A DNA stretch of 64,000 nucleotides from Synechococcus sp. Tobar12-5m-g (GCF_024345415.1 NZ_JAGQBB010000017.1:1-64000); one strand, 5' to 3'; shown: positions 128 through 13,960, numbered from the stretch's first letter. Notes: a model not told the origin generated them from the sequence alone. Numbers and translations: made by a program.

Positions 128-3100
128 CTAGCTTTCCCGCAGTTGACGTACCAAGTCTTCCACCGGCATAGCCTCAACCTCCGAGAGCTTCTGATTCCAG
201 TCGTCCTTGGCGTCAACCCCTGCAAACGAAGCCACCGAAGACCGCTGTTCTGTCTGTGCCAGCGACGGCTCACTCAGGAAAAGCACCTCGGAGAGGAAGT
301 GATCCACCAAGTCATCCACCGTGGGCTTCTCGAAAACAAGCGATTCGGATAGCGACACGCCAATGTTCTTCTCCAACAGCACATTGAACTCGAGCGCCAT
401 CAGCGAATCGAGCCCCATGTTGAAGAGCGGCTCTGACGCATCAATCTGATCAGCCTCGGCAAGGCCCAGCACCTTGGCCAGCTGCTCCTGCACGAACGTT
501 CGGAGCACGGCTCGGCGTTCCATGGTCGGGGTGGCCTGCAGGACGGCAAGAAAGGCGGGAGGGCCAGAATCCCCGCCGGGTGAAGCACCGGATTCGCCGC
601 CTGCCAGCAGGTCGGCCAGGAAGGCCCTCTGGCCCCGGGGAGCCTGACGGGCCAGGCGCTTCCAGTCGTTGCGCAGCACGGCCACGCAGCCGCGAGAGCT
701 CCTGCCCAACAGACTCTCCAGCGCCACCAGGCAGCCCTCCGGTGGCAGCAAACCCACGCCCAGCGCCGAGAGCCGCTGGCGATCCCGACCACCCATGGCC
801 GCGGCCATGCCCTCCCCCTGCCAGGGGCCCCACTGGATCGCCAGGCGGTGGCCAGCGGCAGTCCGGCAGGCGCCATCGAGCGCCCCATTGGCGGCGCCAT
901 AGCCGCTCTGGCCAGGCGAGCCCAGCAAGGAGGCCATCGAGGAGAACGCCACGCCGAAACCGAGCGGCTGCTGCGCCAGGGCCGCCTCGATCGCCATCCA
1001 GCCGTTGACCTTGACGGCCAGGGCCGCCGCCAGGCGTGCCGGCGTCTGGCCATCCATCAGGCCATCATCGAGCTGGCCCGCTGCATGGAAGAAGCCCCGA
1101 ACAGGGCGCTCCACACCGCTGAGGCCAAGCCGCAACCGATCAGCGGCATCCGCCGCCGCCAGATCGATCGCCAGGCGATGCAGGCGCACCCCCCGCTGCT
1201 CCAGGCTCTCCAGCAGGTCAAGGGCCGTCGCTGAGGGGTCCTCCAGGGAACGGGACACCAGCACCAGCTCCTTCGCTCCCTGGTCCACCAACCAGGGCAG
1301 CAACTGCCGGCCGATCCCGCCCAGGGCTCCACTCACCAGGTAAGCCCCCTCGGCGTCGACCCCCAGCGCCGCGGGCCGGGGTGGCTGGGTGATCACCACC
1401 TTGCCGGTGTGGCGGGCCTGGGCCATCAGCCGGAAGGCCTCGACGCTGCGCTCGATCGGAAAAACGGCGACCGGCAAGGGGGTGAGCCGGCCGTCGCCCA
1501 GCTCGTCGATCAGCCGCACCAGGAGCTCCCGCACCAATCCCGGCGTGGCGGCCGCCACCTCCAGCAGGTCGAAGGGCAGGTAGCGGGCATCGGGGCGCCG
1601 TTCCCGGGCCTCCTGGCGGCTCCAGATCTCGATCTTGCCAAGCTCGATGAAGCGCCCCCCCTGAGCCAGGGCGCGGAAGCCGGCATCCACCGCCTCGCCC
1701 TTGAGGCTGTTGAGCACCACATCGACGCCGCGGCCGCCGGTGTGGGCCAGCACCTGATCGGCAAACTCCAGGCTGCGGGAATCGAACACCGCCTCCACCC
1801 CCTGCTCCAAAAGGCCCGGATGCTTCGCGGCGCTGGCGGTGGCCAAAATGCGGGCGCCGCAGCGGCGAGCCACCTGCAGGGCGGCCTGGCCCACACCGCC
1901 GGCGGCCGCATGGATCAGCACGGTTTGGCCCGGCTGCAACTCCGCCAGTTCCACCAGCCCGTACTGGGCGGTGAGGAAGGCGGTGGTCACGCTGGCGCCC
2001 ACCACCGGGTCCATGGCCGCCGGCAGCGGCACCACCAGCTCGGCGCGGCAGCAGACATGGCTGGCCAGGCTTCCCACCGCCAGGGCCGCCACCACCGTCT
2101 GGCCGACCAGCTCATGCGGCACCCCCGCGCCAACGGCCACCACCTGGCCGACACACTCGCCACCGAAGGGCACCTGGGCCTGGGCATCGATCCCCAGTTG
2201 GCGGCTGTAGGCCCGCAACAAGCCAAGGGCATTGAGCACGTCGCGGAAATTCAGGCCGGTGGCCGCCACCGCGATCGCCACTTCCCCCGGGGCCGGCTCC
2301 TGGGCGGCCAGGGGTTCGGGCCGCAGGCTCTCCAGCATCCCGATGGACGCCGTGGTCCAGCGGAAACGATCGGGAGGCAGGGGCATCATGCGCTCGCAGC
2401 GGGCGGTGCCGTTTTGCCAGGCGATCGACCCTTCCTGCTCCGCCAGGGCCCAGAGCAGGGGCCAATCCGCCGGGCCGGGAGCCAGGGTCCGATCCTGCGG
2501 CAGCCACAGCCGGCTCCAGCTCAGCTGGCCCTGCTCCAGGGCCGCGGTTTTGCTGAATGCCTCGAGGGCACCCTGGACCGGACCATCCCCCTCCAGCACC
2601 AGCCAGATCCGACGGGGCTGGGGGGAGCGCTTTGGGTCGCTGCCGAGCTGCTGGGCCAGGGCCAGCAGGGCCTCCAGCGCCTCCTGCAGGGAGATCCTGC
2701 CCAGATCTGGCCAGAACACCACCGGACCAGGACCAGGCACCAGCTCCCCCAGGCCAAGCCGGCGAGCCATCGGGCCCTCCTGGGCCGTCCAGGCCAGGAA
2801 GGAGGCGGCCTGGTCGTCGCTGGCCCCCACCAGCCAGGGGGCCTGGGGCGGGCGAACCGGCACCGGCTGGGGCTCCGTCGGCAAGCCGGTCCAGACGCTA
2901 TGGAACAACCAGTCCGCCGGATTGTCATCACGAGAACTCGCTTCCTCCGGCAGGGGGAACAGCCAATCCAGGGCCTGGCGGGGAAGACGCCGCAGCCGGA
3001 AGCCACCGATCCAGCCGATCAGAGCCTCCTGGGGGGCCATGGACGGATCCAGCACCAGCAGGTCGGCTTCCACGAAGGCGGCTTCGTCGTTGGCAACGAG

Positions 3101-6100
3101 CCGCACCTGGACCTGCAACCGATCGGGCAACGGCAGCCGGGCCAACCAGAGGCGATCGAAGCCAACGGGAAGGAAGACCTGGCCGGCTGCCGCGCTGGGA
3201 TCAAGGGTGGCCGCCACCGCCTGCAGGCAAGCGTCGAGCAGGGCCCAGTCTTTGGCCCCCTGGGGGCGCTCAAGCTCGGCCCAGGCCAGGCCCTGCTCCT
3301 GACGGAGGCCAACCACCCCCCGGAAGGTGGGTCCGTACACCAGACCGATGCGCTCCAGGGCCGCGTAGAAACCCGCCAGCTCCACGGCTGGGGCCGTGGT
3401 GGGACAAGCGCTGGGCTCGAACGGCGGCTGAATCGGCTCTTCCGCGGAAGCGGGTGAGCGACCACGGCCGTGGAAGCTCCACTGGGGGGCACTTGAACCG
3501 GCCGCGCCGGCGGCATCGGTCAACTCCAGGCTGTGAAATTCCAGGCACTGGCTCACCAGCCCCTGGTTCCCATGGCCCTGGGACCCAGGCCCTTCGCCCA
3601 TCACCAGCTGCAACCGCACCGGGTTCTGGCCAAGCTTGAGGGGGCGCTCCAGCTCCAGCCCTTCGATGGCAAGAGGGCGCCCCTGCTCCTGGAGCTCCTG
3701 CAAGGCCAGAACCAGGAAGCCAGCGGCGGGGAACACCACCTGATGGCGGAGGGCGTGGTCGGCCAGGTCGGCCGGTCGATCGGCGCGCAGGAGGATCTCG
3801 AAGCGCTGCTCACGGCCACCCGGAAGGTCGAGCCGCTGCAGCCGTGCTGGCTCCTCCGCAGCGAGCCCTGCTCCAGCCGCAGCGCCGCCAGCTCCGATGC
3901 GCGCTACCACCTGCGCGGCGGACCCAAAGACATGGTGGAGCCAGAGGCTGGCCGGTTCCTTCGACTCCCCCAGCACCGGCCACCAGTAACGCTGCTTCTG
4001 GAATGGATAGCCCGGCAAACCAACGGAGCGGTGGGGGAAGGGCCGGTGGAAGCCACGCCAATCGACCCGGTGGCCCTGGCAATGCAGATGGGCCAGGCTG
4101 GTGAGCATGACGCGGACATCCTCTTGGCCGGGGCGCAGGCTGGGCCACCAGGCCAGGGCCGGATCCGGGAGGCACTGACGCCCCATGCCGGTCAGGGTGG
4201 GACGCGCTCCGATCTCCAGAAAGGTCTGGGCGCCCTGGGCCGCCAGGGTGTCGATGCCCCGGGCGAACAGCACGGGACGAATCAGGTGATCGCACCAATA
4301 GGAGGGCTGGACGATCTCCTCCCCCGCCAGCCGGCCGGTGAGGTTGCTGACCAGGGCTTGGCGGGGGGGCTGGAAGTGAAGCTGGCTGAGCTCCCGCTCG
4401 AAGGCCCCTCGCATCGCCGCCATGGCGGGGGAGTGGAAGGCATGGCTCACCGCCAGGCGATGGACCGCATACCCCTGGGACTGGGCCTGGAGCTCGAGGC
4501 GATCGAGCTCCTTGAGCGGCCCGGACACCACGGTGTTGGCGGGACCGTTGCGGGCGGCCACCGTGAGCTGCGGATGCTGTTGCAGCAACCGATCGACCTG
4601 GTCGGCCGTGGCCAGCAGGGCCACCATGCCGCCGCCAGAGGGCAGCTCCTGCATGAGGCGGCCCCGGGCCACCACCAGCCGCAGGCCGTCTTCGAGGCTG
4701 AACACCCCCGCCAGATGGGCGGCCACCACTTCGCCGACGCTGTGGCCCATCAGCAGATCAGGCCGGATTCCCCAGCTTTGCCAGAGCTGGGCGAGGGCGT
4801 AGCCCACCACGAACAGGGCCGGTTGGGTGTAGCGGGTCTGGTTGAGGGCGTGGGCGGCGGCGGCCTCCGCGCCTGCTGGCGGATAGAGCACCTCAGCCAG
4901 GGGCTGGGGCAGGAGCGGGTCGAGCAGGCGGGTGCAGGACTCGAAAGCCTCCCGAAAAACGGGATGGTGTCGGATCAGCCCTTCGGCCATGCCCAGGGTC
5001 TGGGATCCCTGGCCGGTGAACAGGAAGGCGAGCTTGCCGGGGCGGCGGGCGGCCTGACCCCAGGTGATCCCCTGGGGCTCTTCACCCGCAGCGAAGCCAT
5101 CGAGCTGCTTCAGCAGGACGGCCGGATCCTGGGCAAGGCAGACCAGCCGGCGCGGGAGCTGGCTGCGCCGCTGGTTGGCCGTGGCGCAGACATCCGCCAA
5201 GGGCGGACGACCCGGCTGCCGCATCCACTGGCCCAGCGACGCGGCCTGCTGCCGCAGGGCCGCGTCGGTGCGGGCCGAGAGGCACAGCAGCTGAAGGGGC
5301 AACGGCTTCAAGGCCCGGGGCGGCTTCCCGCCGGACTGCTCCGCTGCCGCCTGGGTGGCTTCGCCGAGCACCACGTGGGCGTTGGTGCCGCCGAAACCGA
5401 AGGAACTGACCCCCACCACGGCCGGGCGATCCGCTTGCGGGAACGGCTCCAGGCAGGTCTGGACCCTGAGCTTCAGCCCCTTGAAATCGATCGCGGGATT
5501 GGGGCTGTGGCAATGGAGGCTGGCGGGAAGCTGCCGGTGATGGACGCAGAGGGCGGCCTTGATCAGCCCCGTGATCCCTGCGGCGGTTTCGCCGTGGCCC
5601 AGGTTGCTCTTCACCGAGCCCACCCTGCAGGGCTCCTCCTCCGGCCGGCCTTCACCGAGCACGGTGCCAAGTGCCCGCAGTTCCACCGGGTCCCCCTGGC
5701 GTGTTCCAGTGCCATGGGCTTCGACGTACTGCGCAGTGGCCGGATCGATGCCGGCCCGCTGGAACGCCTGGCGTACACAATCCACCTGGGCGCGCAGGTT
5801 GGGGGCCACCATGCCGTTGCTGCGGCCGTCGGAATTGATCGCCGTGCCGTGGATCAGGGCGTAGATCAAGTCACCGTTGGCCCGGGCCGCCGAGAGGGGT
5901 TTCAGCAGCACCGCCCCGGCCCCTTCGGAGCGCACATAGCCATTGGCGCTGGCATCGAAACTCTTGCAGCGACCATCGGGGGAGAGCAGACCGGCCTTGC
6001 AGAAGCCCATCTGGATGGCGGGGCTGATCAGGGCCTGCACCCCCCCGGCCAGGGCCGCCACCGACTCGCCGCGCCACAGGCTCTCGCAGGCCAGATGCAC

Positions 6101-6691
6101 CGCCACCATTGAAGAGGAGCAGGCGGTGTCGACCGTGAAGCTCGGACCCTTGAAGTCGAAGAAATAGGAGAGACGGTTCGCCGCGATTGAGCCGGTATTG
6201 CCAGGCAGCAGGAAGGGCTCGTTGTCGGGAACGGCATAGCCTTCCTTGGAAACCCACATAAATTCCCTATAATCCGATGTGGAAATCCCGATGAACACCC
6301 CCACCGCCTGACCGCGAACCGCCTCCAGGGGCTGGCCCCCGTCTTCGAGGGCCCGCCAGGCCACCTCCAGCAACAGCCGTTGCTGCGGATCCATGGAGAT
6401 TGCCTCCCGGGGCGAGATGCCGAAGAAAGCCGCGTCGAACTGGTCGATGCCCTCAATGAAGCCGCCGTGCCGCACGTGCTGATGCAGGGGCCGCTGGGGA
6501 TCAGGATCGAAATGGAGGGCCAGGTCCCAGCGCTCCGGTGGCACCTCGGTGATCGCATCCCGGCCCTGGATCAGCAAGTCCCAGAAATCCCCAGGTGAAT
6601 CCACGCCTCCCGGCAGGCGGCAACCCATCCCCACGATGGCAATCGGCTCAGGTGAACGTTGAGCCAAGGAATCGCCGTTGCTCATGCGCAT
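128..6691 (-). CDS. Type I polyketide synthase, KS-AT-DH-ER-KR-ACP (HglE-like)
   Basis: A complete, fully reducing PKS module of 2187 aa. Domains seen: KS about 16-445 with Cys191 in TACSSS, HGTGT at His326 and KSNLGH at His366; AT about 553-880 with GQGSQ, Ser651 in GHSVGE and HAFHS at 750-754, the signature of malonyl-CoA specificity; DH from about 970 with His979 in a variant HxxxHxxxxP motif; ER with AAAGGVGQAA; KR with FSSMASLLGSPGQSGYGAAN; ACP with MGLDSLMALEF and phosphopantetheine Ser2096; then a helical tail. No thioesterase or reductase is present, so release must happen elsewhere. The start ATG sits directly against the stop of the upstream PKS gene, so the two are probably co-translated. 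An ATG two codons later is an alternative start. The all-reducing domain set predicts a saturated chain. HglE-type is inferred from domain set and KS sequence. Confidence 0.93.
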   Translation of the reverse strand: MRMSNGDSLAQRSPEPIAIVGMGCRLPGGVDSPGDFWDLLIQGRDAITEVPPERWDLALHFDPDPQRPLHQHVRHGGFIEGIDQFDAAFFGISPREAISMDPQQRLLLEVAWRALEDGGQPLEAVRGQAVGVFIGISTSDYREFMWVSKEGYAVPDNEPFLLPGNTGSIAANRLSYFFDFKGPSFTVDTACSSSMVAVHLACESLWRGESVAALAGGVQALISPAIQMGFCKAGLLSPDGRCKSFDASANGYVRSEGAGAVLLKPLSAARANGDLIYALIHGTAINSDGRSNGMVAPNLRAQVDCVRQAFQRAGIDPATAQYVEAHGTGTRQGDPVELRALGTVLGEGRPEEEPCRVGSVKSNLGHGETAAGITGLIKAALCVHHRQLPASLHCHSPNPAIDFKGLKLRVQTCLEPFPQADRPAVVGVSSFGFGGTNAHVVLGEATQAAAEQSGGKPPRALKPLPLQLLCLSARTDAALRQQAASLGQWMRQPGRPPLADVCATANQRRSQLPRRLVCLAQDPAVLLKQLDGFAAGEEPQGITWGQAARRPGKLAFLFTGQGSQTLGMAEGLIRHHPVFREAFESCTRLLDPLLPQPLAEVLYPPAGAEAAAAHALNQTRYTQPALFVVGYALAQLWQSWGIRPDLLMGHSVGEVVAAHLAGVFSLEDGLRLVVARGRLMQELPSGGGMVALLATADQVDRLLQQHPQLTVAARNGPANTVVSGPLKELDRLELQAQSQGYAVHRLAVSHAFHSPAMAAMRGAFERELSQLHFQPPRQALVSNLTGRLAGEEIVQPSYWCDHLIRPVLFARGIDTLAAQGAQTFLEIGARPTLTGMGRQCLPDPALAWWPSLRPGQEDVRVMLTSLAHLHCQGHRVDWRGFHRPFPHRSVGLPGYPFQKQRYWWPVLGESKEPASLWLHHVFGSAAQVVARIGAGGAAAGAGLAAEEPARLQRLDLPGGREQRFEILLRADRPADLADHALRHQVVFPAAGFLVLALQELQEQGRPLAIEGLELERPLKLGQNPVRLQLVMGEGPGSQGHGNQGLVSQCLEFHSLELTDAAGAAGSSAPQWSFHGRGRSPASAEEPIQPPFEPSACPTTAPAVELAGFYAALERIGLVYGPTFRGVVGLRQEQGLAWAELERPQGAKDWALLDACLQAVAATLDPSAAAGQVFLPVGFDRLWLARLPLPDRLQVQVRLVANDEAAFVEADLLVLDPSMAPQEALIGWIGGFRLRRLPRQALDWLFPLPEEASSRDDNPADWLFHSVWTGLPTEPQPVPVRPPQAPWLVGASDDQAASFLAWTAQEGPMARRLGLGELVPGPGPVVFWPDLGRISLQEALEALLALAQQLGSDPKRSPQPRRIWLVLEGDGPVQGALEAFSKTAALEQGQLSWSRLWLPQDRTLAPGPADWPLLWALAEQEGSIAWQNGTARCERMMPLPPDRFRWTTASIGMLESLRPEPLAAQEPAPGEVAIAVAATGLNFRDVLNALGLLRAYSRQLGIDAQAQVPFGGECVGQVVAVGAGVPHELVGQTVVAALAVGSLASHVCCRAELVVPLPAAMDPVVGASVTTAFLTAQYGLVELAELQPGQTVLIHAAAGGVGQAALQVARRCGARILATASAAKHPGLLEQGVEAVFDSRSLEFADQVLAHTGGRGVDVVLNSLKGEAVDAGFRALAQGGRFIELGKIEIWSRQEARERRPDARYLPFDLLEVAAATPGLVRELLVRLIDELGDGRLTPLPVAVFPIERSVEAFRLMAQARHTGKVVITQPPRPAALGVDAEGAYLVSGALGGIGRQLLPWLVDQGAKELVLVSRSLEDPSATALDLLESLEQRGVRLHRLAIDLAAADAADRLRLGLSGVERPVRGFFHAAGQLDDGLMDGQTPARLAAALAVKVNGWMAIEAALAQQPLGFGVAFSSMASLLGSPGQSGYGAANGALDGACRTAAGHRLAIQWGPWQGEGMAAAMGGRDRQRLSALGVGLLPPEGCLVALESLLGRSSRGCVAVLRNDWKRLARQAPRGQRAFLADLLAGGESGASPGGDSGPPAFLAVLQATPTMERRAVLRTFVQEQLAKVLGLAEADQIDASEPLFNMGLDSLMALEFNVLLEKNIGVSLSESLVFEKPTVDDLVDHFLSEVLFLSEPSLAQTEQRSSVASFAGVDAKDDWNQKLSEVEAMPVEDLVRQLRES

Positions 6692-11582
<4,891 letters not shown>

Positions 11583-11590
<8 letters not shown>

Positions 11591-12689
11591 GGAGCAAGTA
11601 TTCCATGACCTTCTGGGGATCGGAATGCAGGGCGCACTCCCGGTAGCGATGCCGCAACAGCTGATAACGGTCAGGATCGGCCAGCCAGGCTCCCACAACC
11701 GCCGCCAGGTCACTGGCGCTATGGATGGTGGTTTCGAGCCCTCGGTCGCGGAAGAACCGCAGGGCCAAAAGCTCCTGGGGCATGGTGCCCCCTAGGTGGT
11801 GAAAGATCAGGGGACAGCCCAGCATCAGAGCTTCTGTGGCGGTGCGGGCTCCAGGCCGGCTGACCATCGCCCAGCAGCGGCGATAGAGGGCAGCCATGGC
11901 CTTGGGTTCCTGGAAATCCATGGCCGTGACAGCCAGGTCTGGGTGGCGAGCGGTCCACTCCTCCACGGCTTCCTTCACTTCCCTGCGGCGTCCGCACAGG
12001 GCCACCACCTCCAGTTGACCCGCCCAGGGGAGCAGCTGCTCCAGAAGGGCCAGATGACTGTTCGCGCCGTTCGAACCTGACCCGAGCACAAGGAGAGGAG
12101 ACCCATCAAGGGTAAGCGGTGCTGGGCCACCCCCATGGAAAGGCACCGGGAGGAGCGGGCCCAGCACGTTGATGCGCTCCTGGGGATATCTCCGCTTCTT
12201 TGCCTCAAGAGCCACAGCCTCGGTGATAGCCCAGAAGCCATCGGCCGCGCGGGTTACCCAGTTGCGGGTGAAGCCGAAGCCACCATCGACTTCCGTGCAA
12301 CAGACGACGCAGCGTAGGTGCGGCCCGACGATGTGCTTTGCCAGATCGAAATGACCGCGGTTGGTGTGGGGATGGGTGGAGATCAGCAGATCCGGACGGA
12401 ATCGGCGCAGCTCCTGAACGAAATGGCCACGGCCGATCAGGACGGTGCCGGGCTTGGTGAAATCTTCGGTTTCCAGGATTCGCCAGTAGATCTTGTGGAG
12501 CCAGGGAGCTTTCGTCTGAATCCAATTATAGAGATTGGTCGCGTCGTCATAGTAGGCACAGGTGTCTTCGTGGAAGAGGACCGCTACATCCACGCGGGGA
12601 GTCTGAAGACCAAACCACTCAACCAGGGCATTCGCGGCCGCCTGATGAGCGGTGCCTGCCCTGGAGGTGAGAATCAGAACGCCCATCAT
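11583..12689 (-). CDS. MGDG-synthase-like glycosyltransferase, family GT28
   Basis: 368 aa. The N-terminus (VLILTSRAGTAHQAAANAL, 4-22) matches the MGDG synthase N-terminal domain, and the following segment with YNWIQTKAPWLHKIYW fits the same fold. The C-terminal nucleotide-sugar half shows VLGSGSNGANSHLALL and SRPGARTATEALMLGCPL (277-294). These enzymes move a sugar from a UDP-sugar to a lipid at the membrane. Lying between an exporter and two PKS genes, it most likely glycosylates the reduced polyketide alcohol. The first ATG (12689) overlaps the MFS stop as ATGA, which fixes the start; the stop overlaps the next PKS start by 8 bases. The sugar donor cannot be read from sequence. A role in ordinary galactolipid synthesis is possible but less likely given the operon. 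Confidence 0.85.
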
Positions 12690-13960
12690 ACAAGCGTCGC
12701 AGGAAGGCTTCCCTGCCGCTTGATTTTTTCCGACTGCCACACAAGAACCACCAGCAACAGCCAACCCACCACAAAGATTCCAATCGCCATCGCTCGACCG
12801 GCGGAGAAACCCATCGTTTCCTTGATCCAGATGGGCCAGAGGCTCCAGGACATCGCCGGCTGCACCAGGCGATCGACGACAACGGCGCTGCTGAAAAACG
12901 CCGACAGCCGGGCGCCCCATTCCAGGGCGAAACGCGCCGCGAACAGTCGCGGCTGCTGGTCAAGGGTGATCGCCGCTTGCCAGAGGCACTGGAGGGCGGC
13001 CCCGACGATGGGAACGCCTGCTGAGAAAAGGGCAAGGCCAGCAAACCAGATCATGGGGAGCTCCTCGAACACCACCAACCCAGCCCCGATCAGGATCACG
13101 CTCTGAACCGCCAGAGCTGAAAGAAGCAGCAAGGCCCAGCGGCGATGTTGCACCGCTTGCCAAGCGATCATCCCGAGTCCATACCCCCCTGCCCCAACCG
13201 CGAGGGCAACACTGAGTCGTGATGCACCCATGGCCGTGACCACCCAGGCGGGGAATAGAAGGTCGCAGGCCGCCAACGCGAAGGCCACGGTGGTGCCAAG
13301 CAAGAGGAGTGGCCGGGTCGAGGAGCTTGCCCAGAGCTCCGCTACTCCAGCCCGCAGGCCAGGCACCCAGACCTGACGAGGCCGAAGCGGGGCGAGGGCC
13401 ACCCGGGGCCAACGGACCAGGGCCACACACGCCAGGGCCACCAAGCAGGTGGCGCCGTCGAGGACCAGCGCCCCCGGGAGGCCGCCGATCCCCGCCAGGG
13501 TCGCGCCAAAGATAGGGGCAGTGGCCATCACCAGTCCCTCGCCATTGGCAAACAGGCCGTTGGCCCTGCCCAGTTGCTGCGTCGGAACCATCTGGGGGAT
13601 GAGGCTCGCGAAGCAAAGCACCAGCGTGGCTTCCGCCACCGCTGCCAGGGACAGCAGAGCCAGGATGAACGCCAGCGGAACAGCCTGGCGCATCAGGGCA
13701 ACGGCCAACAGCAGCGTGACGGTTCCGCCAAGGCCGTTGGCGATCAGCATCACGCGGCGCCGGGGCCAGCCGGCCAGCCTTCGACCCAGCAAGGGAAGGG
13801 CGAGCAGCTTGGCCAGCAGGATGACGATCGCCACCGTCGCAAAGCTGGAGAGTTGGCCATCCCGCTGGAACAACCACAGCCCGAGCGCATAGAGGCTGGT
13901 CTGGGTTCCGAAGTTCGAGACCAGCTGACCTGCCCAGAGGATGGTGAAGGCATTGGGCAA
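12686..13960 (-). CDS. MFS transporter, probable exporter
   Basis: 424 aa, about 12 hydrophobic segments, with MFS loop features such as [13 protein letters not shown] after the second segment. It resembles MFS_3 / enterobactin-exporter-type proteins. It is the first gene of the PKS operon and overlaps the glycosyltransferase by 4 bases (ATGA), so it probably exports the glycosylated polyketide or an intermediate. The only usable in-frame start is TTG at 13960, because a TAG precedes it at about -30 and the nearby ATG is out of frame. It is divergent from cysS, with 84 bases between the start codons that must hold both promoters. Confidence 0.85.

What the first reader, a model, noticed from the sequence alone, without database searches (positions are those of the whole stretch)
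128..13960. Compact operon for a reduced, glycosylated and exported polyketide lipid in a unicellular-type cyanobacterium
Seen: MFS, GT28 (MGDG-synthase-like), KS-KR-ACP-reductase and KS-AT-DH-ER-KR-ACP genes on one strand, overlapping or abutting. Known: heterocyst glycolipids are made by Hgl PKS proteins with HglB thioester reductase and a glycosyltransferase. Inference: this operon makes and exports a glycosylated long-chain alcohol, using fewer, fused proteins and a different glycosyltransferase class. The rest of the window looks like a picocyanobacterium, where heterocysts do not occur, so the product would be a new membrane or surface lipid.
Basis: partly seen in the sequence, partly recalled or inferred. 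Interest (0 to 1): 0.85.

Follow-up and report, generated by a model that had tools for sequence, protein, structure and literature searches.

The report
Picocyanobacterial operon for exported glycosylated polyketide alcohol
Some tiny free-living cyanobacteria, including relatives of the ocean's most abundant photosynthetic cells, carry a compact, conserved and apparently undescribed set of genes that probably builds a fatty-alcohol-like polyketide, attaches a sugar and exports it; it probably makes a glycolipid like that of heterocysts but with unrelated chain-building enzymes.

Summary
The operon is real and intact: MFS, GT28 glycosyltransferase, PKS-A (KS-KR-ACP-thioester reductase) and PKS-B (KS-AT-DH-ER-KR-ACP), overlapping or abutting on the minus strand. 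It is conserved. In a survey of 299 genomes of its order, 33 carry the PKS-B ketosynthase and 30 the GT28; 28 carry both, nearly always adjacent. The usual form is one fused protein, KS-AT-DH-ER-KR-ACP-TR; a mostly marine group including Prochlorococcus has lost the AT and gained a GT2, a hydrolase-like gene and a P450. Among 386 genomes across the phylum, the GT28 occurs only in the window's own family. Ketosynthase trees place both PKSs with modular cis-AT PKSs, well apart from heterocyst-glycolipid/PUFA synthases, so this is not an hgl island. PKS-A carries a CurL-like N-terminal docking peptide in 12 of 12 examples, so PKS-B probably hands its chain to PKS-A. PKS-A would add one C2 unit, leave the beta-hydroxyl and release it reductively, giving an alkane-1,3-diol, which GT28 glycosylates and the MFS exports. 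That is the aglycone type of heterocyst glycolipids, reached by unrelated machinery. No product was measured; chain length, sugar and role are unknown. I found no paper describing the cluster.

The parts
12686..13960 (-). MFS exporter, 424 aa (TTG start as listed; true start not established)
   Evidence: Pfam MFS_1 61 bits; weak resemblance to the Mef/EntS class of efflux MFS; conserved upstream of the GT in most family loci
11583..12689 (-). GT28-type glycosyltransferase, 368 aa, MGDG-synthase/MurG-like
   Evidence: Glyco_tran_28_C above its cut-off, MGDG_synth just below; family profile matches solved bacterial processive diacylglycerol glucosyltransferase 2e-23 and Arabidopsis MGD1 1e-15; predicted fold (pLDDT 88) best matches MGD1, TM 0.72
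6692..11590 (-). PKS-A: docking peptide-KS-KR-ACP-TR, 1632 aa; no AT/DH/ER
   Evidence: catalytic motifs intact
11513..11590 (-). PKS-A N-terminal docking peptide (MVKGLSALQLALLAQKAHDQRQLLQA)
   Evidence: same pattern in 12 of 12 PKS-A loci; aligns with the N-terminal segment of CurL 4mz0
10367..11512 (-). PKS-A ketosynthase
   Evidence: own clade nested among modular PKS ketosynthases
8372..8905 (-). PKS-A ketoreductase (LDD motif)
7934..8128 (-). PKS-A acyl carrier protein
   Evidence: serine motif present
6734..7783 (-). PKS-A terminal thioester reductase
   Evidence: TIGR01746 281 bits, above its cut-off 213; nearest solved structure is the myxalamid terminal reductase MxaA 4u7w, 1e-66; best genome matches HglB-like, 41-45%
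128..6691 (-). PKS-B: KS-AT-DH-ER-KR-ACP, 2187 aa, highly reducing module without release domain
   Evidence: closest solved KS-AT is CurL
5510..6649 (-). PKS-B ketosynthase
4067..5026 (-). PKS-B acyltransferase, GHSVG and HAFH (malonyl-CoA type)
2969..3838 (-). PKS-B dehydratase; catalytic His and Asp kept
1391..2290 (-). PKS-B enoylreductase
818..1348 (-). PKS-B ketoreductase (LDD motif)
299..493 (-). PKS-B acyl carrier protein
131..205 (-). PKS-B C-terminal tail (DDWNQKLSEVEAMPVEDLVRQLRES), candidate C-terminal docking helix
   Evidence: similar tail in the split-form loci L028, L034 and L192, weaker in L186; in fused forms the ACP runs straight into the TR; no match to a solved docking domain, so inferred

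Best explanation
A lipid-like polyketide pathway specific to picocyanobacteria. PKS-B builds a fully reduced acyl chain from malonyl units, on an unknown starter, possibly iteratively. Its C-terminal tail docks on the N-terminal peptide of PKS-A. PKS-A adds one last C2 unit with a malonyl group supplied in trans, reduces only the keto group and releases the chain with its terminal reductase, giving a 3-hydroxy primary alcohol (alkane-1,3-diol). GT28 puts a sugar on the alcohol and the MFS exports the glycolipid. Shown: gene content, domain order, intact motifs, conserved synteny, KS placement, CurL-like docking peptide. Inferred: order of action, 1,3-diol, alcohol rather than aldehyde, sugar transfer, export, location.
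For: Conserved MFS-GT28-PKS neighbourhood; GT28 and PKS-B KS co-occur in 28 of 299 genomes, PKS alone 5, GT alone 2 (this count is not corrected for shared ancestry). In G018 the KS beside the GT28 is truncated and in G151 only a broken GT28 is left, so the pathway decays as a unit in places. The release domain is related to the myxalamid reductase MxaA (alcohol formation: Barajas 2015, title cited in PMC12783407) and to HglB. PKS-A has KR but no DH/ER, which leaves a 3-OH. CurL-like docking peptide on 12/12 PKS-A and on no PKS-B or fused PKS read; class 2 docking is typical of cyanobacterial cis-AT PKS (PMC9113145). Where GT28 is not seen, a GT2 (G142) or, downstream, a sulfotransferase (G072) is present, both hydroxyl-modifying. 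A distant GT28 relative lies beside ACP-FabA and KS genes in Verrucomicrobia.
Against: No product known. Fused relatives lack PKS-A's KS-KR, so a 1,3-diol would need programmed skipping there. A TR can stop at the aldehyde. Three genomes with the split PKS pair (G183, G112, G030) have no GT28 and no obvious replacement next to it. The MFS resembles drug exporters, not known lipid exporters. PKS-A and the mostly marine group lack an AT, so a trans malonyltransferase must be assumed.
Confidence: 0.55

Rival explanations
1. A secreted small metabolite (signal, allelochemical or defence compound): a short reduced polyketide alcohol, glycosylated for self-protection or solubility and pumped out by a drug-type MFS, not a structural lipid.
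For: MFS resembles Mef/EntS-type exporters; patchy distribution, 30-33 of 299 genomes; P450, Rieske and extra GT genes vary between lineages.
Against: GT28 is nearest to membrane-lipid glycosyltransferases; the PKS is a single highly reducing module without methylation or macrocyclisation domains.
Confidence: 0.27
2. A true heterocyst-glycolipid-type (hgl) pathway, inherited or transferred and shortened.
For: TR best matches are HglB-like; the predicted product class is the same as HG analogs of non-heterocytous strains (PMC11804610).
Against: KS tree: Hgl/PUFA ketosynthases form one group (98/96) apart from both PKS families (100/100 each); no ABC exporter or PUFA-type architecture. The genome has a separate PUFA-like cluster elsewhere.
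Confidence: 0.04
3. The TR stops at the aldehyde (two electrons) and the sugar goes on another hydroxyl, or the aldehyde is processed by an enzyme outside the operon.
For: Reductase domains of this superfamily can release aldehydes or alcohols (PMC12783407).
Against: Nearest solved relative is the myxalamid reductase and nearest genomic relatives are HglB-like, both of alcohol-forming pathways; no aminotransferase or aldehyde-using gene in the operon.
Confidence: 0.1

Closest known systems
Heterocyst glycolipid (hgl) islands and the hgl islands of non-heterocytous cyanobacteria making 1-O-hexosyl-3-tetracosanol (PMC11804610)
   Same: PKS chain, thioester-reductase release, sugar headgroup, export; predicted aglycone a long 1,3-diol
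   Different: Ketosynthases from another clade; one or two modular-type PKS proteins instead of PUFA-like subunits; GT28 and MFS instead of an ABC exporter; the non-heterocytous hgl islands lack the hglT glycosyltransferase (PMC11804610)
Curacin-type cis-AT modular PKS (CurL)
   Same: Closest solved KS-AT to PKS-B and closest solved relative of the PKS-A docking peptide
   Different: Stand-alone two-protein or one-protein system with reductive release and a glycosyltransferase; not part of a long assembly line
Myxalamid terminal reductase MxaA (4u7w)
   Same: Closest solved structure to the TR
   Different: Fused to a KS-KR-ACP module here, to a complete reducing module in relatives
MGDG synthase MGD1 and bacterial processive diacylglycerol glucosyltransferase (GT28)
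   Same: GT-B fold and family
   Different: Low identity (16% to MGD1 in the fold match); genetically tied to a PKS; absent from most relatives, so not a housekeeping galactolipid enzyme
Olefin synthase (OLS) pathway
   Same: Cyanobacterial type I PKS making hydrocarbon-like products
   Different: No FAAL, sulfotransferase or thioesterase; reductive release instead

Membership tests
Heterocyst glycolipid (hgl) island | Ketosynthases of the HglE/HglC, PUFA-synthase-like clade | tested here: not met
   Tree of 87 KS rows: Hgl/PUFA one group at 98/96, window KSs in separate clades at 100/100
Heterocyst glycolipid (hgl) island | HglB-type ACP-thioester reductase | tested here: inconclusive
   HglB-like proteins are the best matches outside the family (41-45%), but the TR tree is unrooted and HglB groups with NRPS TRs against this family
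Heterocyst glycolipid (hgl) island | Cluster of at least seven HG biosynthesis homologues (definition in PMC11804610), with hgdBC-type ABC exporter | tested here: not met
   Four genes, exporter is MFS
Heterocyst glycolipid (hgl) island | HglT glycosyltransferase | not tested
   HglT itself was not compared with the GT28
Heterocyst glycolipid (hgl) island | Product is a 1-O-glycosyl-1,3-diol type lipid | not testable with these tools
   Predicted from domain logic only; needs lipidomics
Olefin synthase | FAAL-ACP loading and sulfotransferase-thioesterase release | tested here: not met
   Pfam scan shows neither
Type I cis-AT PKS, CurL-like | KS in the modular cis-AT clade, cis AT, class-2-like docking | tested here: met
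   AT is in PKS-B only
GT28 / MGDG synthase-MurG superfamily | Glyco_tran_28 profile and MGD1/MurG-like GT-B fold | tested here: met
   Glyco_tran_28_C above cut-off; MGD1 and MurG among the best fold matches
Monogalactosyldiacylglycerol synthase | Transfers galactose to diacylglycerol | not testable with these tools
   MGDG_synth Pfam 23.4 bits, under its cut-off of 25 for the window protein

The most novel reading that the evidence does not exclude
Picocyanobacteria, including streamlined Prochlorococcus, independently evolved heterocyst-glycolipid-like 1-O-glycosyl-alkane-1,3-diols with a modular-type PKS, a GT28 and an MFS, giving an unrecognised class of exported envelope glycolipids (and potential lipid biomarkers) in the most abundant phototrophs; one branch lost its AT and works as a trans-AT single-module synthase.
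Probability: 0.3. Interest if true: 0.82.

Novelty: new variant of a known kind. Interest (0 to 1): 0.62.

Why it matters
Picocyanobacteria are thought of as poor in polyketides, and 1,3-diol glycolipids are read in sediments as signs of heterocysts and nitrogen fixation. A second, unrelated route to such lipids in abundant non-fixing picocyanobacteria would be a new lipid class and could confuse a biomarker. A one-module PKS that releases an alcohol for glycosylation, existing in fused, split and AT-less natural versions, is also a compact system for studying PKS evolution and engineering.

Tried and rejected
1) hgl membership: rejected by the KS tree. 2) OLS: rejected on domains. A sulfotransferase search meant to fetch an OLS ketosynthase gave no hit inside a PKS-sized frame, so OLS was not in the tree. 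3) PKS-A as a duplicate of PKS-B: rejected, the KSs lie in different clades. 4) GT28 as a housekeeping galactolipid enzyme: rejected, absent from 269 of 299 genomes of the order. 5) Missing P450 and hydrolase-like partner genes elsewhere in the window's genome: hydrolase-like gene not found, only a 31% P450. 6) Structure of the hydrolase-like partner: model weak (pLDDT 72), only faint alpha/beta-hydrolase similarity. 8) Literature searches for picocyanobacterial PKS clusters found no description of this one, within an open-licence library only.

Full report
CHECK OF THE OBSERVATION. Pfam and NCBIfam give MFS_1 for 12686-13960; a GT28 C-terminal domain with borderline MGDG_synth for 11583-12689; KS-KR-ACP-TR for PKS-A; KS-AT-DH-ER-KR-ACP for PKS-B. 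The PKS-A frame is open from 11713, but its true start is most likely ATG 11590, which overlaps the GT stop; the GT ATG overlaps the MFS stop, and PKS-B begins directly after the PKS-A stop. All active-site motifs are present: KS Cys-His-His, AT GHSVG with HAFH, DH His and Asp, ER and KR cofactor loops, KR LDD, ACP Asp-Ser, TR TGATGFLGA and YxxxK. The contig begins at window base 1, 127 bases past PKS-B, so the 3' side is unknown here; in the sister genome (L028) two ORFs without Pfam match follow. The upstream neighbour is divergent cysS, also in the sister genome.

CONSERVATION. A search of 299 genomes of the order with the GT28 found it in 30; full-length copies are 48-80% identical. Mapping twelve domain queries on 26 neighbourhoods, and on 36 named ones from a scan of about 85,000 species genomes, showed MFS-GT28-PKS again and again. 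Named carriers include Synechococcus sp. CS-1325, Cyanobium usitatum, Cyanobium sp. FACHB-13342, Synechococcus sp. 8F6 and several Prochlorococcus single-cell genomes. In 386 genomes across the phylum the GT28 family appears only in the window's own family. Searching the 299 genomes with the PKS-B ketosynthase gave 33 carriers (counted): 28 with GT28, 5 without; 2 have GT28 fragments only. Of the five, G142 has a GT2 upstream, G072 ends at a contig edge upstream and has a sulfotransferase downstream, and G183, G112 and G030 have no glycosyltransferase adjacent; G030 is broken by a transposase. G018 has an intact GT28 and a truncated KS, and G151 a broken GT28.

THREE ARCHITECTURES. (i) Fused: KS-AT-DH-ER-KR-ACP-TR in one protein, Pfam-checked in L030, usually followed by a GT2, a hydrolase-like membrane protein and a P450. 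(ii) Fused without AT: KS-DH-ER-KR-ACP-TR, Pfam-checked in L042, with GT2, hydrolase-like gene and P450 downstream. In the KS tree the AT-less rows form one branch (100/98), consistent with a single loss. (iii) Split: PKS-A plus PKS-B, as in the window. Nine genomes of the survey have both ketosynthases; some have a Rieske oxygenase between them.

WHAT THE KETOSYNTHASES SAY. In a maximum-likelihood tree of 87 ketosynthase rows, PKS-B/fused KSs form one clade (100/100), PKS-A KSs another (100/100) nested among cyanobacterial modular PKSs, and Hgl/PUFA-type KSs a separate group (98/96). The closest outside KSs to PKS-B (57-60%) include a PKS with a complete DH-ER-KR set and an aminotransferase end (G309) and a free-standing KS beside an AMP-binding-ACP loader (G508). 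PKS-A is therefore a recruited module, not a copy of PKS-B.

RELEASE. All family TRs, split and fused, form one clade (100/100), so the reductase is common to every architecture. The best matches in other cyanobacteria are ~500-residue HglB-like proteins, several 14 kb from an Hgl-type KS, and the best solved structure is the myxalamid terminal reductase, known for primary alcohols (Barajas 2015, cited in PMC12783407). This favours alcohol release; the rooting of the TR tree does not show descent from HglB.

ORDER OF ACTION. PKS-A is the upstream gene but carries the release domain, so it must act last. PKS-A begins with a 26-residue peptide containing the pattern ALQLAL(L/I)AxxAxxxRxLLxAEPIAVxG, with small variations, in 12 of 12 loci, which aligns with the N-terminus of CurL, whose docking pair is grouped with class 2 (PMC9113145). 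No PKS-B or fused PKS read has it. PKS-B of the split form ends in a short, probably helical tail (roughly WxxKLxxVxxLxxDDLxRQLR in WIN, L028, L034 and L192, weaker in L186) where fused forms run on into the TR. The tail matches no solved docking domain, so the pairing is inferred.

MECHANISM PROPOSED. PKS-B makes a saturated chain; PKS-A extends once, with malonyl supplied in trans, reduces the ketone only and releases by TR, giving an alkane-1,3-diol; GT28 glycosylates; MFS exports. The genome has stand-alone and PKS-embedded phosphopantetheinyl transferase domains to activate the ACPs. Non-heterocytous strains with hgl islands make tetracosane-1,3-diol and its glycosides (PMC11804610), so the predicted product class exists in cyanobacteria, made by other enzymes. 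That paper's main text does not mention Cyanobium or Synechococcus.

GLYCOSYLTRANSFERASE. The family profile matches the bacterial processive diacylglycerol glucosyltransferase and MGD1; the predicted structure (pLDDT 88) best matches MGD1 (TM 0.72). Two Verrucomicrobia carry a 32-35% relative next to an ACP-FabA protein and, in L087, a KS and a second glycosyltransferase, an independent link of this GT branch to dedicated acyl-chain synthesis.

LIMITS. Nothing here shows the product, its chain length, its sugar or where it goes. Iteration of PKS-B is assumed. The co-occurrence count does not correct for shared ancestry. Novelty rests on the open-licence literature held here; a genome-mining tool would be expected to flag the PKS as type I, and a description outside this library could exist.

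Noticed in passing
G000 contig C1, 52.5-66.1 kb (L006:5494-19134) and L007: A second lipid-type synthase in the same genome: NMO-type ER-KS-AT-ACP-ACP, KR-DH, KS-AT-DH-PPTase (PUFA/Hgl-like), followed by phosphodiesterase, TauD-like, esterase, condensation-domain and alpha/beta-hydrolase genes; its first KS is 75% identical to one in another cyanobacterial family (G306).
   Followed up: partly
L036, L040, L042-L050, L052, L074, L082, L085: A mostly marine branch (Prochlorococcus and Synechococcus) has lost the AT from the PKS and must use a malonyltransferase in trans; the tree fits one loss.
   Followed up: partly
L034:510-1634, L044:12244-13437 (alignment A2): Conserved ~375-residue membrane protein with an invariant GHSSG motif and no Pfam family, beside the P450 in most carriers but not found in the window's genome.
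   Followed up: partly
L087:7785-12393, L088:7766-11149: Verrucomicrobia carry a distant relative of this GT28 next to ACP-FabA and KS genes: possibly another undescribed glycosylated acyl-chain cluster.
   Followed up: partly
L190:8161-9297 (G072): Fused PKS followed by a sulfotransferase, suggesting a sulfated headgroup in that lineage.
   Followed up: no
L037 and L192 (G169:C5): Operon nearly identical to the window's in its MFS, PKS-A and PKS-B, but the GT28 between them is reduced to remnants while an intact, only 59% identical GT28 lies about 10 kb upstream next to a HisS-like gene.
   Followed up: no
L064, L065, L070: One lake MAG (ZE-13nov19-117) carries three different versions of the operon, both fused and split; it may be a mixed bin.
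   Followed up: no
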